The notes beneath the pieces were generated by a model. It was not told the DNA's origin, ran no database searches, and saw only the letters and a list, made by a program, of their open reading frames with translations. Shown one piece after another: positions 27,217 through 47,823 of a stretch of DNA of 60,459 bases. Source of the stretch: a virus; the IMG/VR virus record IMGVR_UViG_3300033150_000902, positions 1 to 60,459 of that record; one strand, written 5' to 3'. The translations under genes and the position numbers were made by a program. How positions within the stretch are numbered: the stretch's first letter is position 1; each line of letters starts with the position of its first letter.

Positions 27217-27399
27217 TATATACTCCTAAGATAAAAAATAGTCTGGGTTACATGTCAGTCACTGAAGAGGCTTTCCATCGTACCGCTACAATAAATTTTC
27301 TAAGACGGACTTTATTTTGTAGGTTAGTAAGAGACACCCCTTTCTTTTATTCTTCTTTTCTTTATTCTTTATTTTTTATTCTTATATATTCTTTATATG

Positions 27400-27745
27400 T
27401 GTCCTCTCAGCTGTCCTATTTTTATTTTGCCCCCTATGTAACTATCGTAATTTATTAGAAAAAAACAGTGGTTATGCCTGTCCTCTCAGCTGTCCTTTGC
27501 CTGTCCTATTTTTATTTTGCCCCCTATGTAACTATCATAATTTATTAGAAAAAAACAGTGGTTATGCCTGTCCTTTAATTTCCCTTAATTGTCTTGTGCC
27601 TGTCCTCTCAGCTGTCCTCTCAGCTGTCCTCTCAGCTGTCCTGTTTTTATTTAGTCCTTTGGCAACTATCATAATTTATTACTAAATTCTATCGTCATGC
27701 CTGTCCTCTCAGCTGTCCTCTCAGCTGTCCTCTCAGCTGTCCTGT
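27400..27745. repeat. Iteron-like repeat cluster, candidate origin
   Basis: Fourteen copies of TGTCCT occur in 346 bases, most inside a 12-base tandem unit (TGTCCTCTCAGC). These clusters alternate with AT-rich blocks of about 60 bases (containing AACTATCATAATTTATTA) that are repeated nearly identically twice and degenerately a third time. On the minus strand the unit reads GGACAGCTGAGA. The whole 27217-27788 gap has no convincing gene. Iterons plus AT-rich blocks upstream of an initiator gene suggest a replication origin. Confidence 0.6.
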
Positions 27746-30195: not shown

Positions 30196-32646
30196 CTAAG
30201 ATGTATAGGTTCTAAGCAACTCATTGAATGTAGTACTTTCTTCAGGTTCTTTTCCATCCAATACTTTGTCCAGTACCTTTCGTTTCTTGTCCAAAATATA
30301 GGCTATTGTCTCTTCGATTGTTTCTTGAGCGAGAAGGTAATATACATTCACGGCGTTCTTTTGCCCGATTCGGTGGCATCTATCTGTGGCTTGTTCTAGT
30401 TCCCCAGGAGTCCAAGGAAGCTCCAAGAAGGCCACATTAGATGCTGCCGTAAGCGAAATTCCTACGCCCGCCGCCTTGATATTGCCAACGAATAAGCGGC
30501 AGGAGTCATCTGTTTGGAACTTATCAACTGCATCTTGACGCGCTTGCTGAGATGTGGAGCCATCGATCTTGACAGCAACATTTTTGAACTCATCCATTAG
30601 AATGTCAATGGTCATCTTGTGTGTTGCAAATGCAATTAGTTTGCCATCCACTTCAAGAAAGTCTCGTATCCATTCAAGAGCATTGTTTATTTTGCCCTTG
30701 ACCGCCAATTGCTTTAAAGCCTCGATTTTGGCAAGAGCTTCTGCGTTTGAGGCCTTTTTTGCCGCTTCATCTCCTTTGTTACGCCGTATCCAATCAATAA
30801 AGTCTGATTCGGCCTTGTGATATTCTCTTCGATTGTTGATTTCGATAGGGACAATCGAATAGGTTTTGTCGGGCAGATCAGTTAGAACATCCTTTTTTCG
30901 CCGTCTGATCATAACCGTATTGGTAAGTTTTTCGTGGAGTTCTTCAGTGCGTGAGGCCCCTGTGAAGTCCCATCCAAATCCGGTGTGGCGGGCACCACAA
31001 TATCTTTGAGCATACTCCCAAAAGTTAGGAACTACCGTATCATCAATTAGCTTCAGCGCATTGTAAGCCTCGACAGGTCGGTTAACTATAGGTGTGCCTG
31101 ATAAAGCGATCACATGAGGGATATTCTTGCCAAGAGCCTTCACTGCCTTAGTTCTTTTAGCTTTGTTATTTTTGATGTAGTGACAATTATGAACTAAAAA
31201 TCCTTCTGCGTAATATGACGGGTGTCCTGAAACTTCGAGATTATAGACAGTACTTTCGGTAGATCGCTCTCTACTTGGTGATTCCAAAATCTCAATCCCT
31301 TCCACCCTAACTGTTCCAGGAACTTCATTTTCTTTTGGCATGAGATTAAAAACATCTGAAGGAGTTAATAGGCATCTATCTCTACAGTTTCTTGCAAGCG
31401 TCCATCCAACGTCAGTAAAGAAAGGGTGGTTCGGGGTTACCGTTATTTGTTTATTGTTCGACAGGCGGAGATTGATCAATTCTTTTGTTTTTCTTTTTCT
31501 TGCCTTCAATACTGTCCCTACTCCAATGGCGTTGTATACTTGGTCCCCTTCTCGGATGGTTTCTATGTTTTTATCCCCTTCAGGAGTGGATATTTTTGTG
31601 CCAGCAGGGAAACACTCATCTATGATCAATACCTTCGGTTTGATTGCTTGTAATTTTCCAAGCCATCCGGGCAAGATATCATAGTTGATTATGATTATAC
31701 TTCCTGTGATACGCTTGTTGGGTTTAGTCCCGGACAGACGTTGGACGCGGGGGTTTTCCAACCACCTTTTACATTCCCTCTCCCAATTAAGTTTAAGGGA
31801 GGCCGGAACGACTACAATAGCGGGTCGTTTTTCAGGGTGTAATTGCAACCAGGCGAGAGCTTGCGCGGTCTTGCCTAAACCCATCTCATCTGCTATAAGA
31901 GCCCTTCCATTCTTGGCTTCAATGAATCCCACTCCTTTCTTTTGGAATGGATACAAATCCATCTTGAGCCCAGGCACATCTATAGCCTCTACATCATCCA
32001 CGTGTATTTTTGATTTGGATAAGAATTCTTGAAGTCCCTCGTCTAATTCAAAGTCCCATGCCTGCAGGGCCTCCACCGCGTCGATTGTTAAAGGACACGT
32101 CCAAAATTTATCATGAGGGCCGTTGTTGTGGAACCTCCTTCTTGACAAGGTTTTGACGTGATCTACATCCTCTTTATTATAAGGAAACATAATTTTGATT
32201 GCGGGCTTCACCCAACCTTTGAAATGAACAAGTCGGGCATATTTGCGTGTTTGTGATGTTTGTAGCATTCTATGATCCGCAGGCACTTGAATATTCTCAT
32301 TCCAAGGTTCTTGTTTGGTAATGGAAGATTTGGGGAACCACATGTCTATCTTTTTATTTATGATTAATGACCTCAGATAGTTGATGTCATCTTGTGTGAG
32401 GTCATTGAGCACCTCTTTTCTGGCCCCCCAATCCTTTAGGCATTCTGGCCCGATTCCGATTAAGATGGAGCCCGGATGGGTGAGTGTTCTCCCGCAACGG
32501 GCACAAACGCCACGAGGATCAAGCTCGCCGTGTCCGTAAAGATATACAGCCTTGGCTGTCTCCTTGAGTGGAACGGCGACAAGGGAAGTGGGCACATCTT
32601 TGATCTTCGCCACCGCTGGTTTGATTTGATATCGTTTTGTTTTCAT
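30196..32646 (-). CDS. SNF2-family helicase carrying a mini-intein
   Basis: This 816-residue protein has an N-terminal zinc ribbon (CARCGRTL...GPEC, residues 48-69). A HARP-like region follows, then Walker A DEMGLGKT (253-260), motif III LSGTP and the C-terminal SNF2 motifs with GVGISL and TDRCHRIGQ. The Walker B IIDE is interrupted at Cys345 by an intein that ends ...VHN487. After splicing, DECH is restored by Cys488. It probably remodels stalled forks, as SMARCAL1-like annealing helicases do. A strong ribosome site lies upstream. Confidence 0.9.
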   Translation of the reverse strand: MKTKRYQIKPAVAKIKDVPTSLVAVPLKETAKAVYLYGHGELDPRGVCARCGRTLTHPGSILIGIGPECLKDWGARKEVLNDLTQDDINYLRSLIINKKIDMWFPKSSITKQEPWNENIQVPADHRMLQTSQTRKYARLVHFKGWVKPAIKIMFPYNKEDVDHVKTLSRRRFHNNGPHDKFWTCPLTIDAVEALQAWDFELDEGLQEFLSKSKIHVDDVEAIDVPGLKMDLYPFQKKGVGFIEAKNGRALIADEMGLGKTAQALAWLQLHPEKRPAIVVVPASLKLNWERECKRWLENPRVQRLSGTKPNKRITGSIIIINYDILPGWLGKLQAIKPKVLIIDECFPAGTKISTPEGDKNIETIREGDQVYNAIGVGTVLKARKRKTKELINLRLSNNKQITVTPNHPFFTDVGWTLARNCRDRCLLTPSDVFNLMPKENEVPGTVRVEGIEILESPSRERSTESTVYNLEVSGHPSYYAEGFLVHNCHYIKNNKAKRTKAVKALGKNIPHVIALSGTPIVNRPVEAYNALKLIDDTVVPNFWEYAQRYCGARHTGFGWDFTGASRTEELHEKLTNTVMIRRRKKDVLTDLPDKTYSIVPIEINNRREYHKAESDFIDWIRRNKGDEAAKKASNAEALAKIEALKQLAVKGKINNALEWIRDFLEVDGKLIAFATHKMTIDILMDEFKNVAVKIDGSTSQQARQDAVDKFQTDDSCRLFVGNIKAAGVGISLTAASNVAFLELPWTPGELEQATDRCHRIGQKNAVNVYYLLAQETIEETIAYILDKKRKVLDKVLDGKEPEESTTFNELLRTYTS
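31186..31614 (-). other. Mini-intein within the SNF2 helicase
   Basis: Residues 345-487 (143 aa) begin CFPAGTKIST and end GFLVHN before Cys488. Block A is present at Cys1, block B as TVTPNHPF (Thr and His) and blocks F/G as VYNLEVSGHPSYYAEGFLVHN. The length leaves no room for a homing endonuclease. It sits exactly in the DECH motif, so the helicase is inactive until protein splicing occurs. Confidence 0.92.
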
Positions 32647-32901: not shown

Positions 32902-33558
32902 TTATTCCTCCTCAAATTCCCATGCTTCTGAAAAATCACGATCCGCGAATAATTCCGCTAACCCCGCAATTTGTTTTAATCGTAAAACCTCGTCTGGCTC
33001 CATTCCTAATTCTTTTCCAATTCGTTTGTCGCTCCAGTTGCGGCGCGAAAGTTCTACAATGATATCACTCATTGATTCAATTTGGTGTTTTCCTCGCGCA
33101 CGATTGTGTCTTATTGTTGCGGCTATACGATCATTGCGGCCCTGTCGTTCTTTATTGATAATAGAAAGAGGTAAATATCCTCTTAATCGTTTCTTGATTT
33201 TTTGTGATTCTTTGCCTACTCTGTTACGATGGAATCCGTCAACAACTTCATAACCATTTTCCCCCAACCATGCTACAATGGGTTGGGTGAAACCATCCAT
33301 GCCTATTGAATGTTCTAATAAGCGCATTTCTGGCGGAGCGACCACGTTTGGATTATAATCATTGGCATTAACCGATTCCGCATCAATCCAAAGCACACAA
33401 TCAACCGGCTCTTTGTGCATAGGACTGACTTCGTGCAAGGCAAGCTTGACATGATTAAGCACCTCAATTTTTTCATTGTCTGACAGCATGTTTATTTGTT
33501 CGCAGATGGATTTTATTTGTTCCAGTATTTTTGTGCCTAATAATCCAATATCCCCCAT
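32902..33558 (-). CDS. ParB-like protein (IbrB-type)
   Basis: In this 218-residue protein, a ParB/sulfiredoxin-like domain around residues 55-125 has PPEMRLLEHSIGMDGFTQPIV and EVVDGFHRNRVG. It is followed by HTH-like LSRRNWSDKRIGKELGMEPDEVLRLKQIAGL. It overlaps the PAPS reductase-like gene by 22 bases. This pairing is the IbrA/IbrB arrangement known from enterobacteria. A gene-regulatory role is known for IbrAB in E. coli; here the role is inferred. Confidence 0.78.
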   Translation of the reverse strand: MGDIGLLGTKILEQIKSICEQINMLSDNEKIEVLNHVKLALHEVSPMHKEPVDCVLWIDAESVNANDYNPNVVAPPEMRLLEHSIGMDGFTQPIVAWLGENGYEVVDGFHRNRVGKESQKIKKRLRGYLPLSIINKERQGRNDRIAATIRHNRARGKHQIESMSDIIVELSRRNWSDKRIGKELGMEPDEVLRLKQIAGLAELFADRDFSEAWEFEEE

Positions 33559-34748
33559 TGACGTCTCCTTTTTTTCATCATTTTCATGTAGTTATCGTAT
33601 GCGGGCGATTTATGCTGACTGAAAGACAGGCCCTTGCACCAGTAATCGTTACGTAGCAAGGCCTTGCAAATGCGCCGCCAGGACGGCACTTTCCGCGCCG
33701 CTTCGTCTTTCGGATCGGCCTCATCTGGTATGCCGTGCGGATATCCACGGTCTTGCCACCAGTGCAGGAACACCGCGATTTTGTTTTTGTAATGCTCCTG
33801 TCTTGGGGCGGGGAGACTTTCTAAAATCAGCTTGGCGAACGATTCCCATGTATGTCCTTCCGGGCGGGTTATTTTAAGGTTGCCTAAAATGTTGCCGGAC
33901 TCGCGTGCGTAAAGTGCTCCCTGATTAGCTCCATTGACACGGGCAACAACTCTCCCCCATGTTTCCGGCTCTATGATTTGGAATAACCATAACCCCTTGC
34001 GTTGATCGTCTCCATACGGCTGGCAAATCCGCTGCATGTGGATTGACAAGCCTGCTTTTTGCATCAGGTCATAGAGGCGGTTATAAGGCTTTTTAAATTT
34101 GCCTGTATACGTCCAGACATCTTCCGTCCGCCAATCATAGATCGGGTAGACGTTAAAAAGAGTCTTGCCTACATATGTTGTCCAGGCATGTCCCTCAAAG
34201 CTTGCTTTTTTGCCCATGATCGTGCGGAAACGGTTAAGACTTTCATCTGTCCGAATTCCAACAAAACAAGCCGTTAATTCTCCTTTGGCGTACCAATGGC
34301 CGAATAACGGCACAAACTCCTCAAACTCCATGCCGCGCCAAAAAAAGGGGAAGAAATTCTCATCGGTAATAGCTATTTCTGGTGGCTTGCGCACCCAGGC
34401 TTCTTGTTTATCAGGGTCCCAGCACAACCACTGCGGCTCAAACATAGAAACCGCGTTACGCAGATTGATGGGCAAGGCTACCCAATAGGGTGTGATATGA
34501 TCACGATAGAGATCATAACACTCCAATATATGCTCTATGGTGAGCTTATACTGGGCCTCCAGATCGACAAATAACACGCCGACCTCGCGATCTCTTTTAA
34601 TGGCTTCTTCCATTACCAGATGGAGCATGACGGATGAATCTTTTCCGCCCGAAAAAGAAACATAAACTTTCTGAAACGTATCAAACGTCCATGAAATACG
34701 ATCCCGTGCGGCGGTCAAAACATCTATGCCTAATGGTTTTTTAGCCAT
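33537..34748 (-). CDS. PAPS reductase-like PP-loop protein (IbrA-type, DUF3440)
   Basis: This 403-residue protein has the PP-loop SGGKDS at residues 33-38, then FVDLEAQY, WVALP and FVGIRTDES. The YDWRTEDVWTY segment and the C-terminal Trp-rich helical region match DUF3440/IbrA. This family is an N-type ATP pyrophosphatase related to PAPS reductase, not necessarily a sulfate reducer. It is paired with the ParB-like gene. Confidence 0.8.
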   Translation of the reverse strand: MAKKPLGIDVLTAARDRISWTFDTFQKVYVSFSGGKDSSVMLHLVMEEAIKRDREVGVLFVDLEAQYKLTIEHILECYDLYRDHITPYWVALPINLRNAVSMFEPQWLCWDPDKQEAWVRKPPEIAITDENFFPFFWRGMEFEEFVPLFGHWYAKGELTACFVGIRTDESLNRFRTIMGKKASFEGHAWTTYVGKTLFNVYPIYDWRTEDVWTYTGKFKKPYNRLYDLMQKAGLSIHMQRICQPYGDDQRKGLWLFQIIEPETWGRVVARVNGANQGALYARESGNILGNLKITRPEGHTWESFAKLILESLPAPRQEHYKNKIAVFLHWWQDRGYPHGIPDEADPKDEAARKVPSWRRICKALLRNDYWCKGLSFSQHKSPAYDNYMKMMKKRRRQWGILDY

Positions 34749-41174: not shown

Positions 41175-41542
41175 AAGTAGGACTGTATAATCAGAGAATA
41201 CTTGTAGGTCAAAGGAAAGAGGAGGATGTCCAAATCATTCCGAGATTTATTGATAACGTTTCCTCCCTCCTATCCAATACAAGCCCGATTGAAGAACACA
41301 ATTATTTGCTTGGAAAAGAGAATATTCAGTTACAATATTACATATGTCCTACTTTTAATGTTTGCGTCCTCATTTGGCCGCAAACGAACCTGTTCGTATT
41401 TTATTTGACTTCCCTCAAACAATTGCCAGTGCGTGATATAAACAACCTTATAATGGATTACTTCAACACCGATAAATTTGAGTATTCCGCAAGAACGATA
41501 GAGGAAATAGCAAGCAGCGAGTATTCTAATGCTTCTGATTGA
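41171..41542 (+). CDS. Hypothetical protein coupled to the exonuclease gene
   Basis: This 123-residue protein starts by ATGA overlap at 41171 and ends 14 bases into the next gene. It contains NVCVLIWPQTNLFVFYL as a hydrophobic strand and a C-terminal acidic helix. It could be a small accessory factor of the replisome. No family is known. Confidence 0.6.
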   Translation: MKVGLYNQRILVGQRKEEDVQIIPRFIDNVSSLLSNTSPIEEHNYLLGKENIQLQYYICPTFNVCVLIWPQTNLFVFYLTSLKQLPVRDINNLIMDYFNTDKFEYSARTIEEIASSEYSNASD

Positions 41543-42374
41543 TTCAAATAACCTTGCTCACATGGCGAAATACAGCGGCAGAGGTTTGGATAACGGCGTG
41601 GTATATGTTTTCCTGATAGGACTACTGACTCTTTGCCGGTTGTATCAAACCACGGATGTTGTGTTTGCTTGGGACAGTCGAAAATCTCTGCGCCGAAAGT
41701 TGTATGATCCGATGTATAAAAAGACCCGTATAGACGCAAGGGCGGCTAAAGACCAGGCAGAGCAAGAATACGATAAGGAGGCGTTCGCTCAATTTAACGA
41801 GCTCCGACGTTTTGTATTGCCTGATATGGGATTCAGAAATATCTTTCAATTCACCGGATACGAGGCGGATGACATACTCGTTGGATTGTGTAGGGACAAC
41901 CCAGATATTAATAAGATCGTGGTAAGCAGTGATCATGATCTGTTTCAAGTGTTGGCGTATTCTCGTACCGTAATCTATAATCCAAGATCGAAGAAAGAAA
42001 TTAATGCTCAAGAGTTCACGGAACAGAAAGGAATAGACCCTGCTGACTGGCCTATTGTCTTGGCCATTGCCGGCGACCCTGGCGACGGCGTGGTTGGCAT
42101 TAAAGGAATAGGTGAAAAGTATGCTATTAGATATTTGCGGAATGAATTATCCTCGTCTTCCAAGCGTTACAAATTGATCACGGAAAATTGGGATACGGTA
42201 GAGAAGAATATTCCTCTTGTGAAATTGCCTCTTGAAACATGGGATAAGCGAATTGCCTTGAATGAAAATGATATTACCGAGGAACGATTAAGAGCCGTGT
42301 TTTCAAAGTATAAATTTAACTCATTCTTGCATGGGAAGTACCGTCAAGGATGGGAAACGTTGTGTGTTTTGTAA
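41529..42374 (+). CDS. FEN-type 5'-3' exonuclease (PolA N-domain-like)
   Basis: This 281-residue protein begins MLLIDSNNLAHMAKY with acidic metal ligands (Asp5), then VVFAWDS, GYEADDILVG, IVVSSDHDLFQVL and the helix-hairpin-helix AGDPGDGVVGIKGIGEKYA. This is the T5/T7-like flap nuclease. It removes primers and flaps. Together with 39942 and 46429 it completes a three-gene version of DNA polymerase I. The TIGR-like array starts two bases after its stop. Confidence 0.88.
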   Translation: MLLIDSNNLAHMAKYSGRGLDNGVVYVFLIGLLTLCRLYQTTDVVFAWDSRKSLRRKLYDPMYKKTRIDARAAKDQAEQEYDKEAFAQFNELRRFVLPDMGFRNIFQFTGYEADDILVGLCRDNPDINKIVVSSDHDLFQVLAYSRTVIYNPRSKKEINAQEFTEQKGIDPADWPIVLAIAGDPGDGVVGIKGIGEKYAIRYLRNELSSSSKRYKLITENWDTVEKNIPLVKLPLETWDKRIALNENDITEERLRAVFSKYKFNSFLHGKYRQGWETLCVL

Positions 42375-42375
42375 G

Positions 42376-42714
42376 GAAGAAGCCAAGGGGCCAAAGAAAC
42401 CCAGGCTCCCCAAGCGAGCCAATGTTTTGAAGAAACCCACGACGCTCAAGCGAGCCAGTGAAGGGAAGAAACCCATGGTTGAGAAGCGAGCCAACCCACA
42501 CGAGAAGCCCAAGGAGCACGAAGTGAGCCAATAATGCGAAGAAACCCAAAGGCAGAAAGCGAGCCAGGTTTTCCAAGAAACCCAATAAGGATAAGCGAGC
42601 CAGTTATGAAAGAAAAGAAACCCAAAAGCTGAAAGCGCGCCATCGAGCTCAAGAAACCCATGATGACAAAGCGAGCCAAGGTCAATAAGAAACCCAGCGT
42701 AACTAAGCGTATCG
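42376..42714 (+). repeat. TIGR-type guide array 1 (two alternating repeats, 8-base spacers)
   Basis: Repeat 1 (AAGCGAGCCA) and repeat 2 (AAGAAACCCA) alternate every 18 bases with 8-base spacers between them, a 36-base period. Ten repeat-1 units (starts 42376, 42412, 42448, 42484, 42521, 42557, 42593, 42633, 42669, 42705) and nine repeat-2 units (42394 to 42687) are present. The first and last repeat 1 and the pair at 42502/42521 are degenerate, and one spacer (42603-42614) is 12 bases. No two spacers are the same. This is not CRISPR; it fits tandem interspaced guide arrays. Confidence 0.85.
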
Positions 42715-42762
42715 GCCCTGAAACCTAGAAACCTTTAACCCCAAACAGAAAGGAGTCTTAAA

Positions 42763-43731
42763 ATGGCGAAAGAAGAACTGAAAAAGAAAATCCTGAAAAC
42801 CCAGAACGGACTATGCGTTTTGACAGGAGAACCGCTCCCTGAAGATTTATCCCTGTTGGATACTGATCGGGAACAACAGAAAGCCGAGGGCGGCATCTAT
42901 ACAGAGGATAATACCAGGGTGGTAACTCCAGTGGCGCATATGGCAAGACACGGCAACCTGCGATTACGAGACAAAACATTAGACAAACTGAAAGCTCTTG
43001 TAGATGACCGTGAGCAAACAATGAAGTTATACAACAAGATAAATAACCAATTGCTTGCTTACCAAAGACGAACCGACAACCTTAATAATTCCACAATTGC
43101 TTTTCTTACTGACCATCTTGAATCGGTGGAAAAAGCATTGAAAGAAGTGACAAAAAAGGTTGAGAAGGAAGTGAAAAATCTTGCTAAAGTTAACCCTTTT
43201 GTGGCTACCATTCGGGCCGTCTCGGGTATAGGCGACATAACCGTAGCCTACTGTTTGGTCTATATTATTCTTGAAAAGGCTCCGCATGTATCGAGTTTAT
43301 GGAAGTACGCGGGCCTTCACGCACCTTCGCATAAACGGTATCCGAAAAAAGGAGAAAGTACGAAGGGCGGAGGCGGAAATAAAGCCCTGAGAACGGCGTT
43401 GTGGAATATGGCTAATTCGCAAGAGAAAAACATGAAAGGGGCTTACCGTCCAATATATGATCAGGTAAAAGCAAGGCTGGCGCAAAGTGATAAAATTGTT
43501 GAAACCAGAAATACTCAAGGTGTGCTTGTAAAAGTCCCGTGGAAAGAGGCGAAACCGTGTCACAGGCAAGGCGCGGCAAAGCGGGCGGTTATGAAGCATT
43601 TCCTTGCCGATTACTGGTACGTTGGAAGGACGCTGGCGGGGTTGCCTACAAATCCCCCCTATGCCGAGGCCATACTCGGGAAGGAAGGGCACCGAACAGT
43701 CGATCCGAGAGCAAGAGGATGGGTATTCTGA
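42763..43731 (+). CDS. Tas-like protein, HNH-like plus IS110/Nop-type domain
   Basis: In this 322-residue protein, residues about 14-66 resemble an HNH finger (CVLTGEPLP, LLDTDREQQKAEGGIYTEDN, VVTPVAHMARHGN), with Asn50 and His59 in place and Asp at the first His position. A coiled segment (75-145) leads to SGIGDITVAYCLVY and KYAGLHAPSHKRYPKKGES, then GGGGNKALRTALWNMA (203-217), the C-terminal Transposase_20 region of IS110. Tas proteins share this Nop-related region. It lies between two guide-like arrays and follows AAAGGAGTCTTAAA. It is most like TasH. Confidence 0.82.
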   Translation: MAKEELKKKILKTQNGLCVLTGEPLPEDLSLLDTDREQQKAEGGIYTEDNTRVVTPVAHMARHGNLRLRDKTLDKLKALVDDREQTMKLYNKINNQLLAYQRRTDNLNNSTIAFLTDHLESVEKALKEVTKKVEKEVKNLAKVNPFVATIRAVSGIGDITVAYCLVYIILEKAPHVSSLWKYAGLHAPSHKRYPKKGESTKGGGGNKALRTALWNMANSQEKNMKGAYRPIYDQVKARLAQSDKIVETRNTQGVLVKVPWKEAKPCHRQGAAKRAVMKHFLADYWYVGRTLAGLPTNPPYAEAILGKEGHRTVDPRARGWVF

Positions 43732-43781
43732 ATGTGAGTAACGCTTTAAGTAAGATAAAAAAGGAATCCATAATAAATGAA

Positions 43782-43935
43782 AAGCGAGCCACGATCCGTA
43801 AGAAACCCATGGAGGGCAAGCGAGCCACGATCTCGAAGAAACCCAGAGGACAAAAGCGAGCCAATAAACCGAAGAAACCCAACGAGAGGTAGCGAGCCAA
43901 AATTAAAAAGAAACCCAATGCGCTCAAGCGAACCA
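43782..43935 (+). repeat. TIGR-type guide array 2
   Basis: Five repeat-1 units (43782, 43818, 43854, 43890, 43926) and four repeat-2 units (43800, 43836, 43872, 43908) are spaced exactly 18 bases apart, with 8-base spacers. The last two repeat-1 copies each differ by one base. All eight spacers are different. It starts 51 bases after the Tas-like stop and carries the same repeat pair as array 1 in the same orientation. Confidence 0.85.
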
Positions 43936-44772: not shown

Positions 44773-45516
44773 ATGTACAAATTAACTCAATTAGATGGAA
44801 CAGATTTTTATTCAGGTACGATTAATTATGCTGAAAATATAGGTAAAATCATTCGTGTTAAAGATTATGATGGCCCGGAATTTGGAGTATGTGGCAAGGG
44901 TATTCATGCAAGTCGTAATCCTAACGATTGCTTTATTGAAGCGAAAATACCCTGTCGGGCATTTAGAGTACAGGGGATACAACGTATTGTGGGGAATAAA
45001 AAGAAGTCCCAGTATCAAGCAGTAAAAGTATTGGAGGAAATAACTGATTTGGATAAACTATTTGGCTGGAAGTACTCGGAAGCCATTAATCCTATACATC
45101 CCTTTATGATAAAGTCTCCAAAAATAACAGATGAGCATATTAAGTTATTGGAGAAGTGGACTTCGGTCTGGGATTGGTCTATGTATTCTGTCGTGGCTTC
45201 GGTCAGGGATTTGGTCAGGAATTTGGTCGTGGCTTCGGTCAGGGCTTCGGTTGGCGGGAATTCGATTGTGGTTTCAGTCAGGGCTTCGGCCAGGGATTTA
45301 GTTAGGGCTTCGATCTGGAATACGGTCTGGGCTTATGTAGGTTCTATATTTCCGAATATTAAAAAATGGAAATATGTAAAACATAAACTTGGTGAATATC
45401 CTTTTCAACCCGCAGTGGACTTATGGAAGCAGGGATTTGTACCGTCATTTGATGGCAAGACATGGAGATTGCATGCGTGCAAAAAGTCAAAAGTTTTATG
45501 GGAAGGGGAAATTTAA
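44773..45516 (+). CDS. Hypothetical protein with VRAS-type repeats
   Basis: This 247-residue protein has an N-terminal part (GTDFYSGTINYAENIGKII) and a hydrophobic region of short repeats (VVASVRDLVRNLVVASVRASV, VSVRASARDLVRASIWNTVW). A C-terminal part follows (YPFQPAVDLWKQGFVPSFDGKTWRLH). This layout occurs in uncharacterised phage proteins with Val/Arg/Ala/Ser/Trp repeats. The function is unknown. After its stop the same frame stays open to 45660 but lacks a start. Confidence 0.65.
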   Translation: MYKLTQLDGTDFYSGTINYAENIGKIIRVKDYDGPEFGVCGKGIHASRNPNDCFIEAKIPCRAFRVQGIQRIVGNKKKSQYQAVKVLEEITDLDKLFGWKYSEAINPIHPFMIKSPKITDEHIKLLEKWTSVWDWSMYSVVASVRDLVRNLVVASVRASVGGNSIVVSVRASARDLVRASIWNTVWAYVGSIFPNIKKWKYVKHKLGEYPFQPAVDLWKQGFVPSFDGKTWRLHACKKSKVLWEGEI

Positions 45517-46428: not shown

Positions 46429-47823
46429 ATGCAAATCACCGCTACAACAAAAGACGCATACTATTTGCTTCATGAAGGGTCGCTGGCGTTCGCACGCGCC
46501 GAGCAGGTAGGACTTAGGATTGACGTTGAGTACTGTGAAAGACAAAAAGTAATCCTCGACAAAAAAATCAATCGATTGAAAACCAAATTTGAGGAAACGA
46601 AATTCGGCCAAAGGTGGAAGCAGATATACGGAGCAAAATTCAATCTGAACTCCAACCCGCAGTTGTCCTATTGCCTGTATAAAGTTTTGAAAATAGAGCC
46701 TGTCAAACTGACCGATACCGGCATGGGTTCGACTGATGAAGAGGCGTTGTCATCCCTTGAAATGCCCGAATTAGACTTGCTCCTGCAAATTCGTAAACTG
46801 ATAAAAGTCAAAGACACCTATTTGGACTCTCTTATCAGGGAGCAAGTGCGGGGAGTGATTCATCCTTTTTTCAATCTACATACAGTGCGGACTTACCGTT
46901 CAAGTTCTGACAGACCTAATTTTCAGAACATCCCGAAAAGGGATAAGGAGTCCCAAAAGATTGTTCGCGGAGCGATCTATCCCCGCCCTGGCCATCAGTT
47001 ATTGGAAGTTGACTACTCAGGGATAGAGGTCAGGATAGCCGGTGTCTATACGCAGGATGAAAAGTTGATTTACGATACAGTTCATGGGGACATGCACACA
47101 GATATGGCTATTGAATTGTACATGCTTGATTCCCTGAACAAACATCATTCAGGAGAAGCCCAGTTGCGGCAAGGGGCGAAAAACGGTTTTGTTTTCCCTC
47201 AATTCTACGGCGATTATTACGGTAATTGTGTTCCTAACCTTCTTAAATGGGCGAAGGACGCTACTCTTGAGGACGGCACGCCTGCCTTAGTCCATCTGAA
47301 CGATAAAGGATTGGTGAAACTGACCAAAACAGGGAAACTTAGAAACTCGGATAAATTCATGGATCATGTAAAACAAGTTGAAGATCAATTTTGGAATGAT
47401 CGTTATAGAAAATACACTGAGTGGAAAGAAAAGACTTGGAGAAGGTACCAAAAGACAGGATACATCGAATTCCTTAGCGGATTTCGTTGTTCGGGAGTCA
47501 TGCGTAAAAATGAGGTGCTGAACACTCCTATTCAGGGAACGGCCTTTCACTGTCTTTTATGGTCATTTATCCAAGTTGACAAACTTTCCCGGAAAGAGAA
47601 GTGGGATACTAAATTAATTGGGCAAATTCATGACTCAATGCTCTTGGATGTAAATCCAAAAGAACTGAATATGGTGGCTAAGAAGGTGCAAGACATTAGT
47701 TGCAACGAATTATCTAAGGCATGGCCCTGGCTAAACGTACCCCTTGAAGTAGAAGCTGAGATTTGTCCCGTGGATAGACCGTGGGCGGACAAGACAGACT
47801 GGGAAATCCCAAACAATTTTTGA
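46429..47823 (+). CDS. Family A DNA polymerase (polymerase domain only)
   Basis: At 464 residues this matches the polymerase module without exonucleases. Motif A is LLEVDYSGIEVR (Asp195), motif B RQGAKNGFVFPQFYG (residues 247-261) and motif C GQIHDSMLL (His401, Asp402). DRPNFQNIPK is also present. It copies the phage genome, with proofreading and 5' exonuclease supplied by separate genes. The protein starts with the thumb-like helical region. Confidence 0.92.
   Translation: MQITATTKDAYYLLHEGSLAFARAEQVGLRIDVEYCERQKVILDKKINRLKTKFEETKFGQRWKQIYGAKFNLNSNPQLSYCLYKVLKIEPVKLTDTGMGSTDEEALSSLEMPELDLLLQIRKLIKVKDTYLDSLIREQVRGVIHPFFNLHTVRTYRSSSDRPNFQNIPKRDKESQKIVRGAIYPRPGHQLLEVDYSGIEVRIAGVYTQDEKLIYDTVHGDMHTDMAIELYMLDSLNKHHSGEAQLRQGAKNGFVFPQFYGDYYGNCVPNLLKWAKDATLEDGTPALVHLNDKGLVKLTKTGKLRNSDKFMDHVKQVEDQFWNDRYRKYTEWKEKTWRRYQKTGYIEFLSGFRCSGVMRKNEVLNTPIQGTAFHCLLWSFIQVDKLSRKEKWDTKLIGQIHDSMLLDVNPKELNMVAKKVQDISCNELSKAWPWLNVPLEVEAEICPVDRPWADKTDWEIPNNF

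What the first reader, a model, noticed from the sequence alone, without database searches (positions are those of the whole stretch)
42376..43935. TIGR-Tas-like RNA-guided module inside the phage replication operon
Two arrays flank a gene for a protein with an HNH-like N-terminus and an IS110/Nop-type C-terminus. In each array two distinct 10-base repeats (AAGCGAGCCA, AAGAAACCCA) alternate with 8-base variable spacers, giving an 18-base half-period and a 36-base full period. To my knowledge this matches published TIGR-Tas systems: tandem interspaced guide RNA arrays with paired spacers, and Tas proteins carrying a Nop-like domain with or without HNH (TasH) or RuvC (TasR). It sits between the phage's 5'-3' exonuclease and polymerase genes, so it would be expressed early and may target competing DNA or host sequences. 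The array is seen directly; the function is inferred.
Basis: partly seen in the sequence, partly recalled or inferred. Interest (0 to 1): 0.96.

Follow-up and report, generated by a model that had tools for sequence, protein, structure and literature searches.

The report
Phage RNA-guided DNA cutter (TIGR-TasH)
This phage carries a recently described miniature RNA-guided DNA-cutting system (TIGR-TasH) with 13 two-part guides; it is a genuine new member of a known kind, and comparison with relatives shows that the guides are swapped out much faster than the genes around them, a clue to what such systems are for.

Summary
Confirmed. Window 42381-43935 is a TIGR-Tas locus of the TasH type. The 322-aa protein (42763-43731) passes NCBI's TIGR-Tas cut-off, matches the solved TasH of Salicola phage CGphi29 (E 1e-99), and its predicted fold matches the TasH-tigRNA-dsDNA structure (TM 0.86-0.90). 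HNH residues are kept. Nine guide units lie upstream and four downstream of the gene (edge-spacer-loop motif 11 times against 0.01 expected).

The system is known, so this is a new member. What I add: all 25 IMG/VR relatives found have arrays beside the gene; scans of 84,980 prokaryote species genomes and 72,556 plasmids found none. In a near-identical neighbour all four downstream guides differ while repeats and flanking genes are conserved. A second pair (93% identical) swaps guides mostly as whole A+B units.

Natural targets of the window's guides were not found. A related phage's guide matches the end of the clamp-loader gene in many array-less relatives, right beside where its own array sits. 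This hints at a homing-like role, but the general signal is weak and two isolate pairs gave no support.

The parts
41529..42374 (+). 5'-3' exonuclease gene directly upstream of array 1 (context, not part of the system)
   Evidence: phrog_107, E 9e-31; array 1 begins 6 nt after its stop codon
42381..42709 (+). TIGR array 1: nine units (edge AAGCGAGCCA, spacer A, loop AAGAAACCCA, spacer B), truncated edge repeats at both ends
42763..43731 (+). tasH: 322-aa TasH, HNH nuclease domain (about residues 1-65), coiled coil (71-143), Nop/IS110-like RNA-binding C-terminal part
   Evidence: PDB TasH E 1e-99; NF052498; model and fold match; conserved D33, R36, N50, H59, H63
43743..43781 (+). degenerate leader unit of array 2 (loop AAGGAATCCA), conserved in L011
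43782..43935 (+). TIGR array 2: four units; all four guides differ in the near-identical phage L011
39942..41174 (+). UDG/3'-5' exonuclease part of the split polymerase (left border of the variable slot)
   Evidence: phrog_17 positions 476-828; synteny with relatives
46429..47823 (+). polymerase part of the split polymerase (right border of the variable slot)
   Evidence: phrog_17 positions 835-1238; synteny with relatives

Best explanation
A working TIGR-TasH system. The arrays are transcribed on the + strand with the replication genes; with TasH bound, the transcript is cut in the middle of each edge repeat by a host RNase, giving about 13 tigRNAs of roughly 36 nt. A TasH dimer holds one tigRNA: spacer A pairs with one DNA strand and spacer B with the other over a 16-bp site that reads 5'-A-rc(B)-3' (gaps of 0-2 tolerated). 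Each HNH domain nicks one strand, giving a double-strand break, with 3' overhangs of about 6 nt predicted for 8-nt spacers. The likeliest purpose is to cut DNA of related or co-infecting mobile elements, with guides replaced mostly as whole units. Shown here: anatomy, family, fold, guide turnover. Inferred from published TasH and TasR work: processing, pairing and cleavage. Inferred only: purpose.
For: Family and fold. HNH residues conserved in 24 homologues. Array anatomy equals the published one. SpTasH of CGphi29, about 53% identical, was shown to bind 36-nt tigRNAs and to cut DNA HNH- and guide-dependently (PMC12045711). Guides change while repeats and genes stay, as expected if guides follow changing targets. 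The window's own genome carries no match to its guides with fewer than 3 mismatches (absence also expected by chance).
Against: No target of any window guide was found. Published TasR did not restrict conjugation or phage plating, only plasmid maintenance, in E. coli. No terminator was found after the arrays. Expression and processing were not tested.
Confidence: 0.9

Rival explanations
1. Homing-like or allele-targeting role: some guides are aimed at the version of the gene bordering the array in related phages that lack the array. Cutting and repair would spread the array or remove the rival allele, while the carrier's own copy is spared by mismatches.
For: L198 guide 1 equals the end of the clamp-loader gene of L213, has 1 mismatch in four relatives and 2-3 in about 20 more; its own site has 4 mismatches and lies just before its own array; L290 shows the site without an array. 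Five relatives are hit at 0-1 mismatch, while 1842 re-paired guides reach at most 3. Near-matches within 40 bp of own arrays: 16 against 7.0 for re-paired guides, 0 of 100.
Against: The order-swapped control within 40 bp is also raised (11). Most of the wider 150-bp excess is explained by base composition. Two isolate pairs with an empty site gave no match. The window itself shows only one 4-mismatch near-match beside array 1. L198 has no tas gene on its 7.8-kb contig.
Confidence: 0.14
2. An IS110-family transposase gene with fortuitous neighbouring repeats.
For: Transposase_20 C-terminal domain just below its cut-off; IS110 profile 42.5 bits; PHROGs call the family transposase.
Against: IS110 cut-off is 140 bits; no DEDD domain; HNH N-terminus and full-length TasH fold; arrays beside all 25 relatives.
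Confidence: 0.01
3. An inactive relic: arrays and gene are no longer used.
For: Two irregular units and a degenerate leader unit in the arrays.
Against: Intact open frame, conserved HNH residues, 11 regular units, and repeats kept (78 of 80 positions) while guides change in L011.
Confidence: 0.05

Closest known systems
SpTIGR-TasH of Salicola phage CGphi29 (PMC12045711; PDB 9w04, 9vzx, 21kl)
   Same: HNH plus Nop architecture, 53% identity over the full length, 10-nt edge and loop repeats with 8-nt spacers, the same edge repeat AAGCGAGCCA, array beside the gene.
   Different: Arrays on both sides of the gene instead of downstream only; loop AAGAAACCCA instead of AAGACAACCA; lies in a replication operon instead of the head-gene region; all guides different.
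TIGR-TasR and TasA systems (PMC12045711)
   Same: Nop-type RNA-binding part, dual-spacer guides, paired repeats.
   Different: RuvC or no nuclease instead of HNH; TasR is only about 22-24% identical by fold alignment.
IS110-family RNA-guided transposases (IS621)
   Same: Related RNA-binding C-terminal part.
   Different: DEDD catalytic domain absent here, HNH instead; array of many guides instead of one bridge RNA.

Membership tests
TIGR-Tas | Nop-domain effector of the Tas family | tested here: met
   NF052498 102.5 bits, cut-off 100; fold match to TasH and TasR
TIGR-Tas | Dual-repeat array: two alternating 8-12-nt repeats with short paired spacers next to the gene | tested here: met
TIGR-Tas | Edge and loop repeats share the same box motifs at both ends | tested here: met
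   both repeats begin AAG and end CCA; most relatives keep the same two boxes, with variants such as TCA or GAG
TIGR-Tas | Array begins and ends with truncated edge repeats | tested here: met
   array 1 AGCCA ... AAGCG; array 2 ends with a near-full edge
TIGR-Tas | Rho-independent terminator after the array (typical, not required) | tested here: not met
   no terminator-like site after either array; the scan is a simple consensus
TIGR-Tas | Processing into 36-nt tigRNAs bound by Tas | not testable with these tools
   needs small RNA sequencing
TasH | N-terminal HNH nuclease domain with catalytic residues | tested here: met
   D33, R36, N50 invariant, H59 and H63 nearly invariant in 24 homologues; fold match to TasH structures
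TasH | Guide-dependent double-strand DNA cleavage | not testable with these tools
   shown for SpTasH in PMC12045711, not for this protein
IS110 transposase | DEDD catalytic domain and IS110 profile score | tested here: not met
   42.5 bits against cut-off 140; no DEDD domain

The most novel reading that the evidence does not exclude
TIGR arrays act as RNA-guided homing or allele-exclusion elements: at least one guide in an array is aimed at the array-less allele of the gene bordering that same array in related phages, the carrier being protected by mismatches, so that the array (with Tas acting in trans) spreads or displaces rival alleles.
Probability: 0.14. Interest if true: 0.85.

Novelty: new member of a known kind. 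Interest (0 to 1): 0.45.

Why it matters
The natural targets and the role of TIGR-Tas are open questions (PMC12045711). This locus and its near-identical neighbour show complete replacement of the guides of one array in otherwise conserved phages, and L057/L058 show replacement mostly of whole units. The clamp-loader match of L198 is a concrete candidate natural target that can be tested at the bench. TIGR systems also recur at different places within one widespread phage group.

Tried and rejected
1. TasH phages targeting one another: no clear excess over re-paired guides in 1.09 Mb. 2. Window and L011 guides against 0.99 Mb of polymerase relatives: no hit at 0-1 mismatch, 2-mismatch counts equal to control. 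3. Exact scans of IMG/VR with four guide patterns: hits scattered or in abundant families, without support from other guides of the same array. 4. Terminase as a common target: three suggestive hits, no support on scanning. 5. L003 guides 4 and 9, which differ by changes that are synonymous in some frames, as targeting the adjacent HNH gene: self-similarity seen, but no HNH homologue among 44 exact hits. 6. Guides shared between unrelated phages: none beyond chance. 7. Homing in TasA isolate pairs Morrissey/Gustav and Peregrin/Grayson: no match at the empty site (guides of these stem-loop arrays were delimited by eye). 8. Guides against TasH N- and C-termini at peptide level: not significant as a set. 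9. Homologues in species genomes, plasmids and defence libraries: none found.

Full report
Observation. The two arrays and the gene are real and at the stated place. All 12 exact copies of AAGAAACCCA in the 60-kb window lie in the arrays (0.28 expected), and the edge-spacer-loop motif occurs 11 times against 0.01 expected. Array 1 has nine units and begins 6 nt after the exonuclease stop codon. Array 2 has four regular units and a degenerate leader unit. Eleven of 13 units are exactly 10-8-10-8; unit 4 has a 9-nt spacer B and unit 7 a 12-nt spacer A.

Identity. The 322-aa protein matches the solved TasH chain (21kl and seven further entries) with E 1.1e-99, passes NCBI's TIGR-Tas equivalog cut-off and scores far below the IS110 cut-off. 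The AlphaFold model (pLDDT 90.6) aligns over its full length with the TasH-tigRNA-dsDNA complex 9w04 (TM 0.86 and 0.90), then with TasR 9mty and with IS621. The closest phage record is Salicola phage CGphi29 (53% identity), the source of the published SpTasH (PMC12045711). HNH residues D33, R36 and N50 are invariant, and H59 and H63 nearly so, in 24 homologues; L006 has lost both histidines.

Anatomy against the published system. The paper gives dual repeats of 8-12 nt, 16 nt of spacer in all for SpTIGR, arrays up- and/or downstream of the gene, and truncated terminal edges. All fit, except that no terminator was found after the arrays. The published pairing rule and 3' overhangs imply that a target reads 5'-A-rc(B)-3' on one strand, gap 0-2 (my derivation); with 8-nt spacers the same geometry predicts 6-nt overhangs.

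Context. The module lies between a UDG/exonuclease gene and a polymerase gene that match consecutive parts of one PHROG polymerase profile. In many of the 79 other polymerase relatives fetched, these two genes are adjacent or nearly so, so this is a variable slot. TIGR systems recur in the group at other places: L143 and L324 carry TasA-like proteins with arrays, L324 followed by a ParB-like gene; L136 and L198 carry small arrays with no tas gene seen on the contig.

Relatives. An alignment-based scan of IMG/VR found 25 loci that encode relatives, and all 25 have arrays beside the gene (L072 repeats the arrays of L069). The repeat parser, run at a stricter setting, finds no array in 20 shuffled windows. 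No relative was found in 84,980 species genomes by the degenerate-pattern scan or in 72,556 plasmids by tblastn.

Guide turnover. L011 is a 5.7-kb fragment of a near-identical phage (polymerase 98% identical). Its array 2 has the same frame and repeats (78 of 80 positions), but all four guides differ (23 of 64 positions alike, close to random), while the neighbouring genes are mostly 90-95% identical in DNA. L057 and L058 (93% identical) share six guides in order, four identical and two with one change each; units between them are replaced, mostly with A and B together, although the last unit differs mainly in spacer B. Unrelated phages share no guides.

Targets. No target of the window's guides was found in TasH phages, in polymerase relatives or, for the single window guide that was scanned, in IMG/VR. 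One lead came from L198: its guide 1 equals a site at the 3' end of the clamp-loader gene in L213, with 1 mismatch in four and 2-3 in about 20 more relatives; its own site has 4 mismatches and lies just before its own array. Re-paired guides reach at most 3 loci at 0-1 mismatch in 1842 trials, L198 reaches 5. L290, the closest relative, has the site with 2 mismatches and no array. Across all systems, near-matches within 40 bp of a phage's own arrays are about twice the re-paired expectation (16 against 7.0, 0 of 100), but the order-swapped control is also raised (11), so the general claim is weak. Within 150 bp most of the excess is composition. Two isolate pairs with empty sites gave no support.

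Verdict. A genuine TIGR-TasH locus, a new member of a known kind, predicted active. The role is unproven; cutting of related or co-infecting DNA is most likely, and a homing-like variant is the most novel reading left open.

Noticed in passing
window 30196-32646 (-): DEAH-type helicase interrupted by what looks like an intein (CFPAGTKISTPEG ... VHNCH) in its Walker B motif; several PHROG hits at residues 340-420 are to other intein-bearing proteins.
   Followed up: no
window 32902-34748 (-): A ParB-like gene overlapping a PAPS-reductase-like gene (phrog_2159 and phrog_2302), a pair that recalls IbrA/IbrB (the name is from memory).
   Followed up: no
window 27341-27743: Dense direct repeats in a non-coding stretch (90-bp repeat, two runs of CTGTCCTCTCAG); could be a replication origin.
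   Followed up: no
window 45156-45298: 36-bp tandem repeat inside a reading frame (VRASV-type repeats) in the same variable slot as the TIGR module.
   Followed up: no
L006 2980-3930: TasH homologue whose two HNH histidines are replaced (H59R, H63Q) while its array of eight units is kept: probably a natural nuclease-dead TasH.
   Followed up: partly
L081 10638-14660: TasH phage with five small arrays spread between genes, one directly after a gene that resembles TROVE/Ro60 proteins.
   Followed up: partly
L136 7637-7700 and 10335-10434; L198 6332-6449: Small TIGR arrays in gaps between replication genes with no tas gene seen on the contig.
   Followed up: partly
L324 1378-3266: TasA-like gene between two arrays, followed by a ParB-like gene, like the published TasA-TasParB operons.
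   Followed up: partly
L336 (Gordonia phage Morrissey gene 42) and L337 (Rhodococcus phage Peregrin gene 187): TasA-like genes with stem-loop arrays in isolated phages; the relatives Gustav and Grayson lack them at the same site, giving lab-ready pairs with an empty site.
   Followed up: partly
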